This document shows, in pieces, positions 55,580 to 63,032 of a stretch of DNA of 64,000 nucleotides (its first letter is position 1; every line of letters begins with the position of its first letter). The notes under the pieces were generated by a model, which saw nothing but the letters and a program-made list of their open reading frames with translations, searched no databases and had not been told where the DNA came from. The position numbers and the translations under genes were made by a program. The stretch covers positions 62,001-126,000 of the forward strand of contig JAIUOW010000001.1 of NCBI GenBank assembly GCA_020161775.1. Direction: 5' to 3'. Source of the DNA: Pseudomonadota bacterium (GTDB taxonomy: Bacteria; Pseudomonadota; Gammaproteobacteria; Burkholderiales; Burkholderiaceae_C).

Positions 55580-57166
55580 ATGCTGACCGGAGACCTGAAA
55601 AGCAGAATCGACCAGATCTGGAACGCCTTCTGGTCTGGCGGCATCGCCAACCCTATTGAAGTCATCGAGCAGATCACCTACCTGCTGTTCCTGCGCCGCC
55701 TGGACGACCTGCACACGCTGGAAGAAAACAAGGCCGCCCGGCTGAAGAAGCCAATGGAGCGCCGCATCTTCCCCGAAGGCAAGGACCCGCGAGGCCGCGC
55801 GTATGACAGCCTGCGCTGGAGCCGGTTCAAGAATGAAGCCCCGTCAGAGATGTTTGTGGTCGTGGGGGAGCACGTCTTTCCCTTCCTTCGCACCCTGGGC
55901 TCGGACGATTCCACCTACGCCCACCACATGAAGGATGCGCGCTTCACCATCCCCACGCCCGCGCTTCTGGCCAAGGTGGTGGACCTGCTGGACGCGGTGC
56001 CCATGGACAACCGCGACACCAAGGGCGACCTGTATGAGTACATGCTGGGCAAGATCGCCAGCGCCGGGCAAAACGGCCAGTTCCGCACGCCGCGCCACAT
56101 CATCCAGCTGATGGTGGAAATGACCGCCCCCACCCCGCAAGACACCATTTGCGACCCGGCCAGCGGTACCTGCGGCTTTCTGGTGGCGGCGGGCGAATAC
56201 TTGCGTGAGGCACACCCCAGCCTGTTCCACGACGCCAAACTCAACAGACACTTCAACCATGGCATGTTCCATGGCTACGACTTTGACAACACCATGCTGC
56301 GCATCGGCAGCATGAACATGATGCTGCACGGCGTGGACAACCCCGCCATCACCTACCGAGATTCGCTAGGGCAGGAGCATGGATCTGAGGAAGGCCGCTA
56401 CAGCCTGGTGCTGGCCAACCCGCCGTTTGCCGGCAGCCTGGACTATGAAAACGTGGCCAAGGATTTGCTACAGACGGTCAAGACCAAAAAGACCGAGCTG
56501 CTGTTTCTGGCCCTGTTTTTGCGCCTGCTGAAGCCCGGCGGCCGCGCGGCCGTGATCGTGCCCGACGGGGTGCTATTTGGCAGCAGCACCGCGCACAAGG
56601 CGGTGCGCAGGATGCTGGTGGAAGACCAGAAGCTGGACGGCATCGTCAGCCTGCCCGGCGGCGTGTTCAAGCCCTATGCGGGCGTCAGCACCGCCATCCT
56701 GTTCTTCACCAAGACCAACAGCGGCGGCACCGACAGCGTGTGGTTTTACGACATGCAGGCCGACGGCTACAGCCTGGACGACAAGCGCCAGCCCCTGCTG
56801 TCCGAAGACAAGTTGGGCCTGCACGCGGCGCGGGCTTCAAGCCATCCGCTGTCCAAAGAAGAGCACGCCAAAAACAACCTGCCCGACGTGCTGGCCCGCT
56901 GGCGCACCCTCCACCCCGCGCCCGTTCGGGCTGAGCCTGTCGAAGCCCCTTCGCCTGAGTTGGCGCGCAGCCGCACCGAGCAAAGCTTCTGCGTACCCAA
57001 AGCCGACATCGCCGCCAATGGCTACGACCTGAGCATAAACCGTTACAAGGAAGTGGTGCATGCGCAGGTGCAGCACCGCGCGCCTTCGGAAATCTTGGCG
57101 GAGCTGGCCAAGCTGGAGGATGAAATTGCAGCGGGGATGAAGGTGTTGGAGGAGATGTTGAAGTGA
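55580..57166 (+). CDS. hsdM: type I restriction-modification methyltransferase subunit HsdM
   Basis: 528 residues from ATG 55580 (MLTGDLKSRIDQIWNAFWSG). N6-adenine methyltransferase: SAM motif I DPASGTCGFLVAAGEYLREA at about 192-211 and catalytic NPPF at 280-283 (VLANPPFAGSLDYENV). An N-terminal helical HsdM_N domain covers about 1-130. A short stretch at about 447-457 (PVRAEPVEAP) is encoded by a dispersed-repeat-like sequence read in frame. With HsdS it methylates the target; with HsdR it completes the restriction complex. The 3' end overlaps hsdS by GTGA. Confidence 0.96.
   Translation: MLTGDLKSRIDQIWNAFWSGGIANPIEVIEQITYLLFLRRLDDLHTLEENKAARLKKPMERRIFPEGKDPRGRAYDSLRWSRFKNEAPSEMFVVVGEHVFPFLRTLGSDDSTYAHHMKDARFTIPTPALLAKVVDLLDAVPMDNRDTKGDLYEYMLGKIASAGQNGQFRTPRHIIQLMVEMTAPTPQDTICDPASGTCGFLVAAGEYLREAHPSLFHDAKLNRHFNHGMFHGYDFDNTMLRIGSMNMMLHGVDNPAITYRDSLGQEHGSEEGRYSLVLANPPFAGSLDYENVAKDLLQTVKTKKTELLFLALFLRLLKPGGRAAVIVPDGVLFGSSTAHKAVRRMLVEDQKLDGIVSLPGGVFKPYAGVSTAILFFTKTNSGGTDSVWFYDMQADGYSLDDKRQPLLSEDKLGLHAARASSHPLSKEEHAKNNLPDVLARWRTLHPAPVRAEPVEAPSPELARSRTEQSFCVPKADIAANGYDLSINRYKEVVHAQVQHRAPSEILAELAKLEDEIAAGMKVLEEMLK
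56922..56949 (+). repeat. short dispersed-repeat-like insertion read in frame within hsdM
   Basis: CCGTTCGGGCTGAGCCTGTC, continuing into GAAGCCCC, matches the common proteobacterial mini-repeat whose reverse reads CTTCGACAGGCTCAGCCCGA. It is usually intergenic. Here it is inside hsdM, in frame, giving PVRAEPVEAP in a variable C-terminal loop with no stop codon. No other copy was found in this window. Identification is from memory of the repeat. Confidence 0.6.
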
Positions 57167-58920
57167 GCACCGCTTCGAATGTCCGGATTGGTGATTTTTG
57201 TGAGACTGGCTCCGGCTCGACTCCGCCTCGCGACAAAATGGCTCGCTACTACGATGGCGGCACCATTCCTTGGGTGAAATCTGGTGAGTTGCGCGAATCC
57301 ATCATCGACGCAACGGAAGAACATGTGACAGAAGCCGCTTTGAAAGAAACGAGTGTGAAGCTCGTTCCCGCCAATGCACTGCTTGTTGCGATGTATGGCG
57401 CAACTGTCGGGCGGTTGGGCATATTGGGCGTGCAAGCAACGACCAATCAAGCGGTTTGTCACATCGTGCCAGACCCGTCGCGGGCTGATGTCCGCTACCT
57501 CTATCGAGCGCTTGAAACAAAAGTTTCCGAGATGCTCCAGCGCACAGTTGGCGGAGCACAGCCGAATATCAATCAAGGAATCGTGCGGGATCTACGTGTG
57601 CCACTGCCGCTGTTGGAAGAACAACGCCGCATCGCCGCCATCCTGGACCAGGCCGAAACCCTCCGAACCCAACGCCGCCAAGCCCTGGCCCACCTCGACA
57701 CCCTCACCCAGTCCCTCTTTCTCGATATGTTTGGCGACCCGGTGGCGAATGACCGTGGCTGGCCGATAGCTTCAGTCGGCGATTTCGTGGCTGGCTTTGA
57801 AAGTGGAAAGAGTTTGGTTGCAGACGACGAAGACGACTCCACATCCGCGTATCGAGTACTCAAGGTCAGTGCTGTTACTTCCTTGGAGTACAAACCTGAG
57901 CAAAGCAAAGCCGTGCCTTCAGACTACGTCCCACCGCAGTCACACGTTGTTCGCGTTGGTGATCTCTTGTTTAGCCGCGCAAACACCACCGAGCTGATCG
58001 GAGCAACCGCATTCGTAGCAACTACGCCGGACAACCTGCTGCTTCCAGATAAGTTGTGGCGCTTCGTATGGCATCAGCCAACCAGAACTTCGCCGTTGTA
58101 TGTTCGGCATCTGTTTCAGCAGCCTAAGTTCCGGCAGGAAATCGGACAGCGCGCCAGTGGAACCAGCGGGTCAATGAAGAATATCTCGCAGGAGAAAGTT
58201 CTTTCGATTCGGGTCGGTCACCCCCCACTCGTCCTCCAACAAACCTTCGCCACCCGCATCCAGGCCATCGAAGCTCTCAAAGCCACCCACCGCGCCGCCC
58301 TGGCCCAGCTGGACGCCCTGTTCGCCTCGCTCCAGCAGCGGGCATTTGCGGGGGAACTGACGGCACCGACGCACGCCGCAGCGGCAGAACCTCCAACCCA
58401 GCGCAGCTTTGCGCAATTGGGGCAACTCGACGCCTGCAAGGGAATCGAATCCCTGGTCTATGCCGCCAAAAGGCTGCCGGGCAAGGGGCACTATTGGCCC
58501 ACCAAGGTGCAGTACCTGGCCGACAAGCGGCATCTGGAACGCTACGGCCGCACCATTTATGGCGAGACCCACGTGGCCATGCCTTTTGGGCCCGTGCCCC
58601 AGGCGGCCTTCAATGCCAGCCGTGCCTTGGCCCAAGGTGAATTGATCAGTGAATTCCCCATGGACGTGATGCGTGCAGCCTTGCGGCGTGAGGGCGACCA
58701 TCTGGTTGCCCTGCGCGATGCGAACATGGCGCTGTTGGGCGCGGAAGAACGCGAAAGCCTGGAGTGGGCCATTCGCTACGCGAGAGACATGAACTTTGAA
58801 CAGCTCAAGACCGCGTCGCACGATGCGGCCTGGACCAAGACCGCCGCCAATGCGCCCATCGCGTGGGAAGACATCATCCAGACGCTGCCACAGGCAGCGC
58901 AGCAGCGCTTCTTCGGCTGA
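57163..58920 (+). CDS. hsdS: type I specificity subunit HsdS fused to a C-terminal Panacea/SocA-like (DUF4065) domain
   Basis: 585 residues from GTG 57163, with AGGAG upstream. TRD1 is about 1-145, then the conserved helix LEEQRRIAAILDQAETLRTQ (151-170), TRD2 about 200-350, and the second conserved helix LVLQQTFATRIQAIEALKAT (356-375). This is a full two-TRD subunit. An extra about 160 residues follow (425-585): VQYLADKRHLERYGRTIYGE, then THVAMPFGPVPQAAFNASRA, the DUF4065/Panacea pattern known from antitoxins and SocA. TRD DNA looks less GC-rich than its surroundings, typical of exchanged TRDs. The Panacea fusion is the unusual point; its role is unknown. Confidence 0.88.
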   Translation: MSTASNVRIGDFCETGSGSTPPRDKMARYYDGGTIPWVKSGELRESIIDATEEHVTEAALKETSVKLVPANALLVAMYGATVGRLGILGVQATTNQAVCHIVPDPSRADVRYLYRALETKVSEMLQRTVGGAQPNINQGIVRDLRVPLPLLEEQRRIAAILDQAETLRTQRRQALAHLDTLTQSLFLDMFGDPVANDRGWPIASVGDFVAGFESGKSLVADDEDDSTSAYRVLKVSAVTSLEYKPEQSKAVPSDYVPPQSHVVRVGDLLFSRANTTELIGATAFVATTPDNLLLPDKLWRFVWHQPTRTSPLYVRHLFQQPKFRQEIGQRASGTSGSMKNISQEKVLSIRVGHPPLVLQQTFATRIQAIEALKATHRAALAQLDALFASLQQRAFAGELTAPTHAAAAEPPTQRSFAQLGQLDACKGIESLVYAAKRLPGKGHYWPTKVQYLADKRHLERYGRTIYGETHVAMPFGPVPQAAFNASRALAQGELISEFPMDVMRAALRREGDHLVALRDANMALLGAEERESLEWAIRYARDMNFEQLKTASHDAAWTKTAANAPIAWEDIIQTLPQAAQQRFFG

Positions 58921-58964: not shown

Positions 58965-59018
58965 ATGACCGCGTTGCAGGAAGTGTTTGACAAATTCTTC
59001 AGGGAAGCACCCGCATGA
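58965..59018 (+). other. 17-codon open frame between hsdS and the antitoxin
   Basis: Encodes MTALQEVFDKFFREAPA then TGA. Its stop overlaps the antitoxin ATG as ATGA, mirroring the other junctions in the operon. It could be a leader peptide that couples translation, or the remnant of a longer gene. There is no homology I recognise. Confidence 0.3.
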
Positions 59019-59272
59019 CAACCGACATTCAACTGCCCAAAGTCACCCAAACCCGCATTGCCCGCCTGGCGCAGGCGGCCGGGCGCAGCCCTGCGGCGAC
59101 ATTGCGCTTTGTGCTGCGCGACGGGTTTGACGCGGTGGAGCGCAGCATTCAGGAGAATGCCAATGCCGATGCGGAGTTTGCGGCTGGCGCCACCGCATCC
59201 CACGCGGACGTGATGGCCGAAGCACAACGATTGGTCCGGCAGGGCAAACGCAGCACGCGCGCCGCCGCATGA
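59015..59272 (+). CDS. ribbon-helix-helix antitoxin embedded in the hsd operon
   Basis: 85 residues (MTTDIQLPKVTQTRIARLAQ; AAGRSPAATLRFVLRDGFDA). The N-terminal beta strand and two helices match RHH/CopG-like ParD-type antitoxins, and the Ala/charged C-terminus (ADVMAEAQRLVRQGKRSTRA) would bind a toxin. AGGGAAG lies about ten bases before the ATG. The stop overlaps the toxin start by 4 bp. RHH antitoxins usually repress their own promoter; a TTGACA at 58987-58992 is the only promoter-like element found, without a good -10. Confidence 0.82.
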   Translation: MTTDIQLPKVTQTRIARLAQAAGRSPAATLRFVLRDGFDAVERSIQENANADAEFAAGATASHADVMAEAQRLVRQGKRSTRAAA

Positions 59273-59553
59273 CGCTGCCCATCGTCTGGTCGGCGCAGGC
59301 GCGCCGCCAGCTGCTGGCCAGCCTTTCGCACATTGCCGACGAAGACCCGTTGGCGGCAGAGCTGGTTTTCAAACGGGTAGAAAAGTCACTCCGTACTCTG
59401 GGTGAGTTTCCTGAAACGGGGCGCCCGGCACCTGTGGCGGGTGTGCGCAATTACCCGGTCCCCAAAACGGGGCACAGCTTTGACTATCGGGTTGTGAAAG
59501 GCGAAATCCGCATCCAGCGCTGGTACCGCCAGAGGCAGCAGCCGACGCCATGA
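59269..59553 (+). CDS. ParE/RelE-family toxin embedded in the hsd operon
   Basis: 94 residues. [20 protein letters not shown] and [20 protein letters not shown] form the two ParE helices; [20 protein letters not shown] and [20 protein letters not shown] are the ParE beta-sheet core. ParE toxins poison gyrase; RelE-like relatives cut mRNA on the ribosome. The family cannot be fixed further without a search. Overlaps of 4 bp with both antitoxin and hsdR place the pair inside the restriction operon. Confidence 0.85.
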
Positions 59554-62500
59554 CGTCCAATTTCTCATTCCTGCAAGCCGAATGGCCTGGCCTGTACGTT
59601 GAGGCCGGCAAGGCCGAGCAAGCCGCGCTGACCGACCCGCGCACAGCCTGCTTCTATGCCCGCCGCACGCTGGAGCTGACGGTGGTGTGGCTGTTTCAGG
59701 CCGAGGGTGGGCGAGGCGGCAGGCTGCAAATGCCCTACAAGCCCGATCTGTCGGCCTTTCTGTTTGAGCCCAGTTTCAAGGCGCTGGTGGGCCCCGCACT
59801 GCACGCCAAGATGGAGGTGGTGCGCAAGCAGGGCAACAACGCGGTGCACAGCGCACGGCCCATCACCACCGCGGATGCCACCGCCGTGCTGCGCGAGCTG
59901 TTCCAGGTGGCCTTTTGGCTGGCGCGCAACTACGGGCGCAATGTGGCCACACGGCCCAGCCCGGCCTTGCAGTTCCGTGCCGAGCTGTTGCCCCGCCCGC
60001 TCGACGCAGCAGCCAGCCAAGCAGCCGCCCAGGCCGGTGCGCAGGCTACACAGGCCGCACTGCAAAAGCTGGCCACGCTGGCCGACGAGCTGGCCGCACG
60101 CGATGCGGCCCTGGCCAATGCCCAGCAGAAGTCCGCCGCTCTGGACGCAGAGCTGGCCCAGCTGCGTGCCGAGGTGGCCGCCGCTAAAGCCGCCAACACC
60201 GCCACGCCCGACGCGCACGACTACAACGAGGAAGAGACCCGTGACCTGTACATCGACCTGCTGCTCAAGGAGGCCGGCTGGAAGCTGGACCAACCCCAAG
60301 GCAACGATGTCAAGCGGGAATTTGAAGTGCAGGGCATGCCCAACAACCAGGGTGTGGGTTATGTGGACTACGTGCTGTGGGGTGACGATGGCAAGCCGCT
60401 GGCCGTGGTGGAGGCCAAACGGACCCGGCACGACGCCCGCGTGGGCCAGCAGCAGGCCAAGCTGTATGCCGACTGCCTGCAGGCGCAGTTTGGCCAGCGC
60501 CCGCTGATTTACTTCACGAATGGCTACGAGCACTGGTTCTGGGACGACACCACCTACCCGCCGCGCCCGGTGCAGGGTTTTCACAAAAAGGACGAGCTGC
60601 AGCTGCTGATGCAGCGGCGCAGCGCCGCCAAACCGCTGGCGGCGGTGAACATCGACAGCGCCATCGTGGAGCGGCACTACCAGCAGCGCGCCATTCGCCG
60701 CATTGGTGAAACCTTTGAAAAGGACCGCCAGCGCAAGGCCCTGGTGGTGATGGCCACCGGTGGCGGCAAGACGCGCACCGTGATCGCGCTGGTGGACTTG
60801 CTGCAGCGCGCCAACTGGGCCAAGCGCGTGCTGTTTCTGGCCGACCGTGTGGCGCTGGTCAAGCAGGCCGCCAATGCCTTCAAGGCGCATTTGCCCGACG
60901 CGGCGGCCGTGAATCTGGTGACTGACAAGGCCACCGAGGGGCGGGTGTACGTCAGCACCTACCCCACGATGATGGGTCTGATCAACGAGACCGACGAGGG
61001 CCTGCGCCGTTTTGGCGTGGGGCATTTTGATCTGGTCATCGTGGACGAGGCACACCGCTCCATCTACCAGAAGTACCGTGCCATCTTTGCCTATTTCGAT
61101 GCCCTTCTGGTGGGCCTGACGGCCACACCCAAGGACGAGATTGACCGCAACACCTACAGCCTGTTCGAGCTGGAAAGCGGCGTGCCCACCGACGCCTACG
61201 GCCTGGAGGACGCAATTGCCCAGGGCTACCTAGTGCCGCCGCGTGCGGTGTCGGTGCCGCTGAAGTTCCAGCGCGAGGGCATCAAGTACGCCGAGCTGAG
61301 TGACGACGAGCGCGCGCAATGGGATGAACTGGATTGGGACGATGAAGGCCAGGCCCCTGACGAAGTGGGGGCGGAGGCCGTGAACAAATGGCTGTTCAAC
61401 ACCGACACGGTGGACAAGGTGCTGCAGACGCTGATGACGCGCGGCCACAAAGTGGCGGGAGGCGACCGGCTGGGCAAGACCATTGTTTTCGCCAAGAACA
61501 ACGACCATGCGGAGTTCATTGCCCAGCGCTTCAACGCCAACTACCCACACTACGCGGGGCAGTTTGCGCGGGTCATTACCTTCAAGACCGAGTACGCGCA
61601 GAGCCTGATTGATGATTTCAGCGTGAAAGACAAGGCGCCACACATCGCCATCTCTGTGGACATGCTGGACACGGGCATTGACGTGCCCGAGGTGGTGAAC
61701 CTGGTGTTCTTCAAGATCGTGCGGTCCAAGGCCAAGTTCTGGCAGATGGTGGGGCGCGGCACCCGGCTGTGCAAAGACCTGTTTGGCCCCGGGCAGGACA
61801 AGAAGGACTTTTTGATCTTCGACTTCTGCCAGAACCTTGAGTATTTCAGCCAGGACTTGCCGGGCACCGACGGCGCGTTGGGTCAGCCACTGGGGCAAAG
61901 GCTGTTCAATGCGCGGCTGGAACTGCTGGCCGCGCTGGACTCGCGGCTGTCAGCCAACGGCCTTGCGGTGGCAGAGGCGCCGCCGGTGGACTCCTTTCGC
62001 CTGACCGAGGCGGGCATGCGCCGCGACACGGCGGCAATGCTGCATGCCATCGTGGCCGGCATGAGCCTGGACAATTTTGTGGTCCGACCAAAGCGGCTGT
62101 GGGTCGAGGCCTGGAGCACGGCCAGCGCGTGGGAGCGCCTGCTACCAGAGCAGCTGCAGGACATCAGCACCCACCTGTCTGGCCTGCCCACCGCGGTGCG
62201 CGACGACGATGAAGACGCCAAACGCTTCGACCTGTTGATGCTGCGGCTGCAGCTAAGCGCAATGAATGCCGAGCCGGCCTTTGCCCGGCTGCAACAACAG
62301 GTGCGGGCGCTGGCCGACAGGCTGCTGGAGCTGGGCAGCATCCCGGCGGTACGCGAACACATGCTGCTGATTGAGGCCATGGCCGGCGACGAATGGTGGC
62401 AGGACGTGACCCTGCCGATGCTCGAACAAGCTCGCCGCAACCTGCGCGCGCTGGTCAAGCTGATCGACAAGACCGGCCGCAAGGTGGTCTACACCGACTT

Positions 62501-63032
62501 TGAGGACGAACTGGGCGAGATCGCAGAGATGCCGCTTCCACTGGGTAGCAGCGCTGGCGACTTCGAACGGTTCCGTGCCAAGGCACGTGCATTCCTGCGC
62601 GCGCACGAGGACCACATCAGCCTGCACAAACTGCGGCGCAACCAGCCCCTAACCCAGGCAGACCTGGCTGAGCTGGAGCGCATGCTGGCCGAAAGCGGCG
62701 CGGGCACGGCGCAAGACATCGACCGCGCCCGCACCGAGGCCAACGGCCTGGGCCTGTTCATCAGGTCACTGGTGGGCCTGGACAGGCAGGCCGCCACCGA
62801 GGCATTGAGCAGCTTTGTCGCGGGTGCCCCGCTGACGGCCAACCAGATTGAATTTGTGAATCTGATCGTCACCCACCTGACGGAGCGCGGCGTGATGGAC
62901 CCTGCCCTGTTGTACGAGCCGCCCTTTACCGGCTACGCGCCACAGGGCCCGGACGGGCTGTTTACTTCAGCCCAGGTGGAGGCGCTGTTTGGAGTGCTGG
63001 AACAGGTGCGCCGGACTGCCCTGGCAGCTTGA
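59550..63032 (+). CDS. hsdR: type I restriction endonuclease subunit HsdR (EcoEI-like) with N-terminal DUF4145 domain
   Basis: 1160 residues. An N-terminal DUF4145-type domain (about 20-130) and an Ala-rich coiled coil (about 150-220) precede the PD-(D/E)xK nuclease (Asp273; EAK at 288-290 in AVVEAKRT). The helicase motor follows: [18 protein letters not shown] at 401-418, DEAH at 499-502 in [27 protein letters not shown], and Q-x-G-R-G-T-R in [15 protein letters not shown]-terminal helical domain docks HsdM/S. Nuclease and motor residues are intact, so the system should cut DNA. The start overlaps the ParE-like toxin stop by 4 bp. Confidence 0.94.

What the first reader, a model, noticed from the sequence alone, without database searches (positions are those of the whole stretch)
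58435..58917. Panacea/SocA-like (DUF4065) domain fused to the HsdS subunit
After the second TRD and its helix, HsdS continues for about 160 residues with the pattern YLADKRHLERYGRTIYGETH, then AMPFGPVP, diagnostic of DUF4065. This domain is known as a promiscuous antitoxin domain and, in SocA, as a ClpXP adaptor for its toxin. On HsdS it could bind a toxin (possibly the ParE encoded next door), recruit a protease to control HsdR (restriction alleviation), or sense phage proteins. I know of no described function for such a fusion, and with the internal TA pair it suggests a combined restriction-abortive system.
Basis: partly seen in the sequence, partly recalled or inferred. Interest (0 to 1): 0.8.

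Follow-up and report, generated by a model that had tools for sequence, protein, structure and literature searches.

The report
Antitoxin domain fused to DNA-recognition subunit
In a few bacteria the part of a virus-cutting enzyme that recognises DNA carries, at its tail, a complete antitoxin domain that has lost its usual partner gene; what it does there is unknown, but it appears to be kept by selection and makes a clear, testable case.

Summary
HsdS (57163-58920) matches Pfam SocA_Panacea at residues 448-557, E=1e-10, above cut-off, joined at the native HsdS C-terminus. Three relatives share the fusion: two Variovorax, one betaproteobacterial MAG. The four fused domains form one clade (100/99), yet their hsdR genes do not: one fusion, then movement or loss among operons. 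It is under purifying selection. Its nearest free-standing cousins are PanA-type antitoxins followed by a small partner gene (8 of 8 bacterial or plasmid loci, six of which built the model; 12 of 13 viral loci). That gene is absent from the fused loci and undetected in the window's genome.

The link to the neighbouring ParE is weak. The hsdS-hsdR gap is a general cargo slot: 14 of 20 readable Panacea-free operons hold toxin- or defence-type genes there, and the slot is in print as a hotspot. The window's RelB/ParE-like pair has its own antitoxin-like gene. Best reading: a captured PanA domain without its toxin, kept as a protein-docking tail on the type I enzyme. Its function is untested.

The parts
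55580..57166 (+). hsdM, type I methyltransferase subunit (stop overlaps the hsdS start)
   Evidence: Pfam N6_Mtase E=2.4e-58, HsdM_N 5.8e-17; start codon read from the sequence, 55580 ATG after the 55577 codon shown
57163..58359 (+). HsdS proper: two target-recognition halves and helices, ending at the native C-terminal motif LFASLQQRAFAGEL
   Evidence: Methylase_S; in the 11 of 26 Panacea-free loci where the motif was recognised, HsdS ends 0-2 residues after it
58360..58407 (+). linker between HsdS and the Panacea domain (boundaries approximate)
   Evidence: poorly aligned between the fused relatives
58408..58917 (+). PanA-like (SocA_Panacea, DUF4065) domain fused to HsdS; Pfam match 58504-58833
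   Evidence: PF13274 E=1e-10 whole protein, 1.1e-11 piece; alignment with free-standing PanA cousins over its length
59015..59272 (+). RelB-like antitoxin gene of the cargo TA pair (94 nt after hsdS)
   Evidence: NF048017 E=7.6e-5, below its cut-off; position before the toxin, 4-nt overlap
59269..59553 (+). RelE/ParE-like toxin gene of the cargo pair; overlaps the hsdR start by 4 nt
   Evidence: PF05016 E=2.5e-8; distantly similar plasmid genes annotated RelE/ParE, some with RelB/DinJ
59550..63032 (+). hsdR, type I restriction subunit (EcoEI-type C-terminus, N-terminal DUF4145)
   Evidence: PF04851, PF08463, PF04313, PF13643

Best explanation
A PanA-toxin cassette landed next to hsdS in a type I operon. 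The whole PanA antitoxin was then fused in frame to the unaltered C-terminus of HsdS, and the toxin gene was lost (origin: well supported by comparison, about 0.85). The fused module afterwards passed between hsd operons of related bacteria, or was lost from some. Because the domain stays intact and constrained without its partner, I think it works as a protein-docking or sensing tail on the methyltransferase core: each assembled enzyme displays one PanA fold that binds a small protein partner (a phage protein, a toxin or a host factor), so that the partner's presence is coupled to the state of the restriction enzyme (inference, about 0.4). The RelB/ParE-like pair beside it is ordinary cargo of the hsdS-hsdR slot. 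Shown here: fusion, single clade of the fused domain, absence of the partner gene, constraint, and a different history of the hsdR genes. Inferred: that the missing partner is a toxin, binding of any partner, and any effect on restriction.
For: Domain above cut-off. In the four fused loci HsdS runs on for 178-191 residues past the motif at which it ends in 11 of 11 recognised unfused ones. Fused domains one clade at 100/99, one change needed, while the same four labels need 3 changes on the HsdR tree, at least 2 forced by well-supported branches. Partner gene after 8 of 8 nearest bacterial or plasmid cousins among the loci held (six built the model, L154 and L155 did not) and after 12 of 13 viral cousins, one of them weakly and some near-identical to each other; none in the fused loci; none detected in the window genome, without a positive control. 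Purifying selection: dN/dS 0.073/0.338 between the two Variovorax domains, 0.229/1.409 for MAG against V. boronicumulans. Free-standing panA genes beside type I operons exist in 2 of 83 scanned loci, so the raw material is at hand. Published precedent: in several PanA proteins the Panacea domain does not itself neutralise the toxin and is suggested to be sensory (PMC10440598, passages).
Against: No ligand is known. No usable structure (pLDDT 43 and 42) and no solved relative found by sequence. The fusion is rare: 3 of 399 family genomes, the window's included, and 2 of 81 of the Variovorax genus sample. Sister operons with 83%-identical HsdR do without it, so it is dispensable. The window's copy has diverged about twice as far as its HsdR and HsdM from V. 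boronicumulans (dN 0.42 against 0.21 and 0.19), compatible with relaxed constraint; the MAG copy has not (0.229 against 0.227 for HsdR).
Confidence: 0.45

Rival explanations
1. Tolerated passenger: a chance stop-codon loss joined hsdS to a panA remnant; the domain folds, does no harm and has no selected role beyond staying soluble.
For: Rare; dispensable in sister operons; window copy diverges fast relative to HsdR.
Against: Intact in four loci, relatives at 51-56% identity to the window copy, with dN/dS about 0.16-0.32 (dS saturated in the distant pairs); core PanA residues invariant.
Confidence: 0.2
2. Guard of the cargo toxin: the tail holds AbiEii or ParE inactive on the enzyme; when a phage blocks or destroys the enzyme, the toxin is freed and the cell aborts infection, as PrrC does with EcoprrI.
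For: The cargo slot is directly downstream; all three relatives carry AbiEi/AbiEii, and tblastn saw none in the 26 Panacea-free regions, 20 of them with a readable slot, so domain and cargo may be linked. PrrC precedent: toxin gene embedded in the hsd operon, protein sequestered in the type I complex and activated on inhibition (PMC3874165 and PMC12707154, passages).
Against: Both cargo toxins come with their own antitoxin-type gene. The cargo differs between window and relatives. The AbiE link rests on three loci, two from one genus, and may be descent. Panacea-free sisters carry toxins in the slot too.
Confidence: 0.14
3. Spare antitoxin: HsdS-Panacea still neutralises toxins of the small PanT-like family brought in by phages or mobile elements (anti-addiction).
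For: Core residues shared with PanA cousins; 12 of 13 viral-contig cousins carry the partner gene after the domain, and a Serratia phage has a small gene directly after its copy.
Against: Fused clade sits on a long branch (0.77), so specificity may be gone; toxicity of the partner family is untested and the members tried have no family match.
Confidence: 0.13
4. Protease adaptor: the tail brings ClpXP to HsdR and limits self-cutting (restriction alleviation), as SocA brings ClpXP to SocB.
For: SocA is a ClpXP adaptor (PMC5422525, passages). ClpXP degrades translocating EcoKI HsdR and the degron was not found (PMC4231737, abstract and outline).
Against: The domain does not match the SocA equivalog model NF047745 at E<=1, while two free-standing PanA do weakly, far below its cut-off. 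ClpXP and Lon were not needed for other PanA (PMC8832971, passages). Sisters with closely similar HsdR lack it.
Confidence: 0.08

Closest known systems
PanA antitoxins of PanAT toxin-antitoxin systems (Panacea, DUF4065, PF13274)
   Same: Same domain family over its full length, core residues kept; nearest relatives are free-standing PanA-type genes of chromosomes, a plasmid and viral contigs
   Different: Not free-standing, no adjacent partner gene of the cousins' kind, fused to HsdS
SocA of Caulobacter crescentus (ClpXP adaptor antitoxin, type VI TA)
   Same: Shares the Pfam domain
   Different: No match to the SocA equivalog model at E<=1; adaptor function untested
Type I restriction-modification operon with embedded toxin cargo (DarTG2 between hsdS and hsdR in the EPEC RptR island, PMC12255303; prrC embedded in the EcoprrI operon, PMC3874165, its exact place recalled)
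   Same: hsdM-hsdS-cargo-hsdR order with a toxin-type cargo
   Different: Those accounts, as far as the passages read show, describe separate cargo genes, not an antitoxin domain joined to HsdS
HTH-Panacea antitoxins (MqsA-like name recalled for L083, L085)
   Same: Panacea as the C-terminal domain of a larger protein
   Different: The partner there is a DNA-binding antitoxin region; here it is a type I specificity subunit

Membership tests
SocA_Panacea domain (PF13274) | Score above Pfam's curated cut-off | tested here: met
   42.9 bits against 25.7 for HsdS, 46 bits for the piece
SocA_Panacea domain (PF13274) | Conserved core residues shared with free-standing PanA | tested here: met
   11 invariant columns in 10 sequences, among them K37, H46, GPV 65-67, R107, H142
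PanAT toxin-antitoxin system | Two-gene module with an adjacent partner toxin | tested here: not met
   Partner-family profile: no hit in the window or in the fused relatives; the gene after the domain is a RelB-like antitoxin gene. A partner of an unrelated family cannot be excluded
PanAT toxin-antitoxin system | Neutralises a toxin by direct binding | not testable with these tools
   No complex prediction available; needs co-expression
SocA (type VI antitoxin, ClpXP adaptor) | Match to equivalog NF047745 (cut-off 190 bits) | tested here: not met
   No hit at E<=1
Type I restriction-modification HsdS | Methylase_S repeats with hsdM and hsdR in the operon | tested here: met
   PF01420 two stretches; N6_Mtase and ResIII/EcoEI_R_C neighbours
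RelBE/ParDE type II TA (cargo pair) | Toxin above family cut-off | tested here: met
   PF05016 34.8 bits against 23
RelBE/ParDE type II TA (cargo pair) | Recognisable antitoxin | tested here: inconclusive
   NF048017 22.9 bits against 50; gene order and 4-nt overlap fit
PrrC-like guarded toxin | Toxin gene inside the hsd operon | tested here: met
   ParE-like between hsdS and hsdR
PrrC-like guarded toxin | Toxin held by the restriction enzyme and released when the enzyme is blocked | not testable with these tools
   Bench test needed; the toxin has its own antitoxin-like gene, which argues against

The most novel reading that the evidence does not exclude
The type I enzyme is itself an antitoxin. 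HsdS-Panacea holds a toxin (the cargo AbiEii or ParE, or an incoming PanT-type toxin) in check, and when a phage disables the enzyme the toxin is released and the infection aborted: one protein joins DNA recognition and toxin control.
Probability: 0.15. Interest if true: 0.85.

Novelty: new variant of a known kind. Interest (0 to 1): 0.5.

Why it matters
[quoted passage not shown] Here nature has cut the domain away from its usual partner and fixed it to a well-understood machine with a simple readout (restriction, methylation, plaque counts), so its function can be asked by one clean truncation at a known boundary. If it regulates the enzyme it would be a physical link between restriction and toxin-type immunity.

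Tried and rejected
Structure: AlphaFold models of the domain (4 sequences) and of full HsdS (3 sequences) came back at pLDDT 43.4 and 42.4, so I made no fold search with them. No solved relative by sequence with the single domain or a 10-row profile.

Collections: viral scans with the fused domain alone or the three-row alignment found no relative; the ten-row alignment found 13 viral cousins. The single genome-contig scan used only two narrow peptide patterns and gave three loci, so the number of fusions is a lower bound.

Considered and rejected: that the ParE neighbour explains the domain (slot cargo is general); that other long Panacea frames are HsdS fusions (L083, L085 and L086 HTH type by eye, L084 a glycosylase-like protein, L087 no HsdS-like part; L088, did not look like a Panacea protein). 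Labels such as MqsA-like, RhuM-like, glycosylase-like and transposase-like are recalled from motifs or read by eye, not from a call.

Left untested: ClpX binding, toxin binding, complex models, L127's unclassified insert (not scanned against Pfam), and two of three matching phage records and two of five plasmid records (not opened; the two plasmid ones repeat a third).

Full report
What is there. The frame 57163-58920 is one 585-residue protein. Pfam gives Methylase_S (E=2.4e-27, two stretches) and, at residues 448-557, SocA_Panacea (E=1e-10, 42.9 bits, cut-off 25.7; the tail alone 1.1e-11). The genome (4.36 Mb, 32 contigs) has no other Panacea match. The operon is hsdM - hsdS-Panacea - 94 nt - RelB-like - ParE-like - hsdR; RelB/ParE and ParE/hsdR overlap by 4 nt. 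ParE-like passes PF05016; the RelB-like gene has only a sub-threshold NCBIfam hit.

Where the domain is joined. The script was given 30 loci. In the four fused ones the protein runs on for 178-191 residues past LFASLQxxAFxGEL. Of the 26 others, the motif was recognised in 11, and in all 11 HsdS ends 0-2 residues after it. In 15 it was not recognised (9 of these have an HsdS match, none a Panacea match). So a complete HsdS, a short linker and a complete PanA-like protein are fused.

How common. The tail as query: 14 of 399 family genomes match at E<=0.001, of which three are fused (window, G284, G323) and the rest are weaker or free-standing frames; the G284 match reads one TGA near its end, where that protein stops a few residues earlier than the others. 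In the Variovorax genus sample 2 of 81. PF13274 itself: 41 of 399 order genomes (46 match rows) and 30 of 369 class genomes (45 rows, one below cut-off); only the window's frame reaches HsdS size, and the five other frames of 332-411 aa were looked at and are not HsdS. A profile of the fused domains found matches in 12 of 349 phylum genomes, the longest other frame being 268 aa. Five plasmid and three phage records match the tail; the four I opened (of these eight) are free-standing. The genome-contig scan gave three loci: a betaproteobacterial MAG, Variovorax sp. DXTD-1 and V. boronicumulans NBRC 103145. Samples overlap: G323/L017/L020 is one MAG contig, G284/L016/L021/L145 one strain, and G1227/L152 has the same match position as L022.

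Ancestry. The six free-standing proteins scoring best with the fused profile among the loci held (over 50 bits) each have a small gene directly after them. An alignment of these six partners used as a profile finds the partner beside those six (by construction), beside L154 and L155 (independent; best free-standing hits), weakly in four further loci (E 8e-6 to 6e-3), and nowhere in the window or in the fused relatives. Of 13 viral-contig cousins, 12 have it, L182 only weakly (E 2.4e-5) and several being near-identical to each other. The window's genome gave nothing at E<=1, but without a positive control. The partners tried (three to four per library) match no Pfam, PADLOC, NCBIfam or PHROGs family, so calling them toxins is inference from PanAT gene order. 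In a tree of 44 Panacea domains (the fused four, the cousins, 12 of 13 viral ones and 18 others that I picked) the fused ones form one clade (100/99; 100% of 200 bootstrap trees) on a stem of 0.77; the order of the deeper groups is not resolved.

History of the operon. On the HsdR tree (24 sequences: window, L022 and 22 of the 28 regions fetched; L137, L139 and L140-L143 were left out) the four Panacea operons need 3 changes, at least 2 forced by starred branches; the window's HsdR is closest to L119, L144, L120 and L121, whose genomes had no tail match. HsdM agrees: 92% and 90% to L119 and L120, 72-73% to the Variovorax loci. One fusion followed by movement of the hsdS module, or by losses, fits. 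Free-standing panA next to a type I operon was seen in 2 of 83 loci scanned with the window's Hsd proteins: L169 (with a small gene after it) and L170, gene order read by eye; a possible stage before fusion.

Selection. Nei-Gojobori dN/dS for the domain: 0.073/0.338 (two Variovorax), 0.229/1.409 (MAG and V. boronicumulans), 0.386-0.424 over 1.33-1.75 (window with each; dS saturated). HsdR of window with V. boronicumulans: 0.21/1.306; HsdM 0.191/1.408; HsdR of the MAG 0.227/1.662. The domain is constrained, but the window's copy has diverged about twice as far as its HsdR and HsdM; the MAG's copy has kept pace with its HsdR.

The neighbouring toxin. Of 41 genomes with an HsdR match at E<=1e-100 (window included) I fetched 28 besides the window; 12, mostly 36-39% identity or fragments, were not fetched. 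Two are fused. Of the 26 others, four have hsdR before hsdM (L140-L143), L144 ends at a contig edge, L134 is cut by the region I took, and 20 have a readable hsdS-hsdR interval (L136's HsdS end is uncertain). Of these 20, 14 hold toxin- or defence-type genes: HipA in four, HepT in two, Fic in three, AAA ATPase in three (with a PtuB match in L121 and its homologue in L130), Schlafen/AlbA in two (in L123 on the other strand). Four are empty, one has a fragment (L139), and one is unclassified (L127). None of the 26 has AbiE by tblastn, whereas L145, L017 and L022 all have AbiEi/AbiEii. So toxins next door are common with or without Panacea. The AbiE link is 3 of 3 relatives against 0 of 26, but not the window, and may be shared descent. 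The hotspot is in print: DarTG2 and another gene pair between hsdS and hsdR (PMC12255303, passages).

How it may work. Known facts: in several PanA proteins other parts neutralise the toxin, and the Panacea domain is proposed to be sensory; in one (B. choladocola) residues of the Panacea core are needed (PMC10440598, passages). SocA is a ClpXP adaptor (PMC5422525, passages), yet other PanA work without ClpXP or Lon (PMC8832971, passages). EcoKI HsdR is a ClpXP substrate whose degron was not found (PMC4231737, abstract and outline). PrrC is a toxin sequestered in a type I enzyme (PMC3874165 and PMC12707154, passages). I prefer a docking or sensing tail (0.45 with its origin), then passenger (0.2), guard of cargo toxin (0.14), spare antitoxin (0.13) and protease adaptor (0.08). 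None of these functions was tested.

Novelty. I found no paper on an HsdS-Panacea fusion in the searches (open-licence PMC only; subscription papers and preprints are not held; most listings were seen as titles and abstracts only). 'HsdS' does not occur in the main text of PMC10440598, and neither 'fused' nor 'fusion' in that of PMC8832971; supplements were not read. I file it as a new variant: a known antitoxin domain in a new place on a known machine.

Noticed in passing
window 59613-59894 (HsdR residues 22-115): HsdR starts with a DUF4145 domain (PF13643, E=1.6e-9) ahead of the nuclease domain.
   Followed up: no
window 56925-56945: A repeat-like 21-mer lies in frame in a variable linker of hsdM; 0 expected by shuffling. 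L119 has the 12-base core once and a similar-looking stretch at the same linker, while L120, L145 and L022 have a shorter linker.
   Followed up: partly
L084 (G774 contig 32), minus strand near 600: A weak Panacea match (25 bits, 25.7 with its neighbours in the frame) at the end of a protein whose first part looks like a uracil-DNA glycosylase (label recalled); possibly another DNA enzyme with this tail.
   Followed up: no
L169 6560-7549 and L170 7149-7844: Free-standing panA genes beside type I restriction operons; in L169 followed by a small gene.
   Followed up: partly
L172-L183 and L185 (Serratia phage vB_SspS_OS31): Viral contigs and a phage carry free-standing genes of this Panacea type with a small gene after them; the partner genes tried match none of four family libraries, a candidate uncharacterised toxin family.
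   Followed up: partly
L119-L139 hsdS-hsdR intervals: One type I family shows a wide range of cargo in one slot: HipA, HepT, Fic, AAA/PtuB, Schlafen/AlbA, and in the fused operons AbiE or RelE/ParE.
   Followed up: yes
L017 8498-9679: A transposase-like gene (label by eye) cuts the 5' part of the hsdS-Panacea gene in this MAG, so that copy is probably dead.
   Followed up: no
G000 contigs 1, 17 and 18: The window's genome has four AbiEii matches elsewhere, two of them with a stop inside.
   Followed up: no
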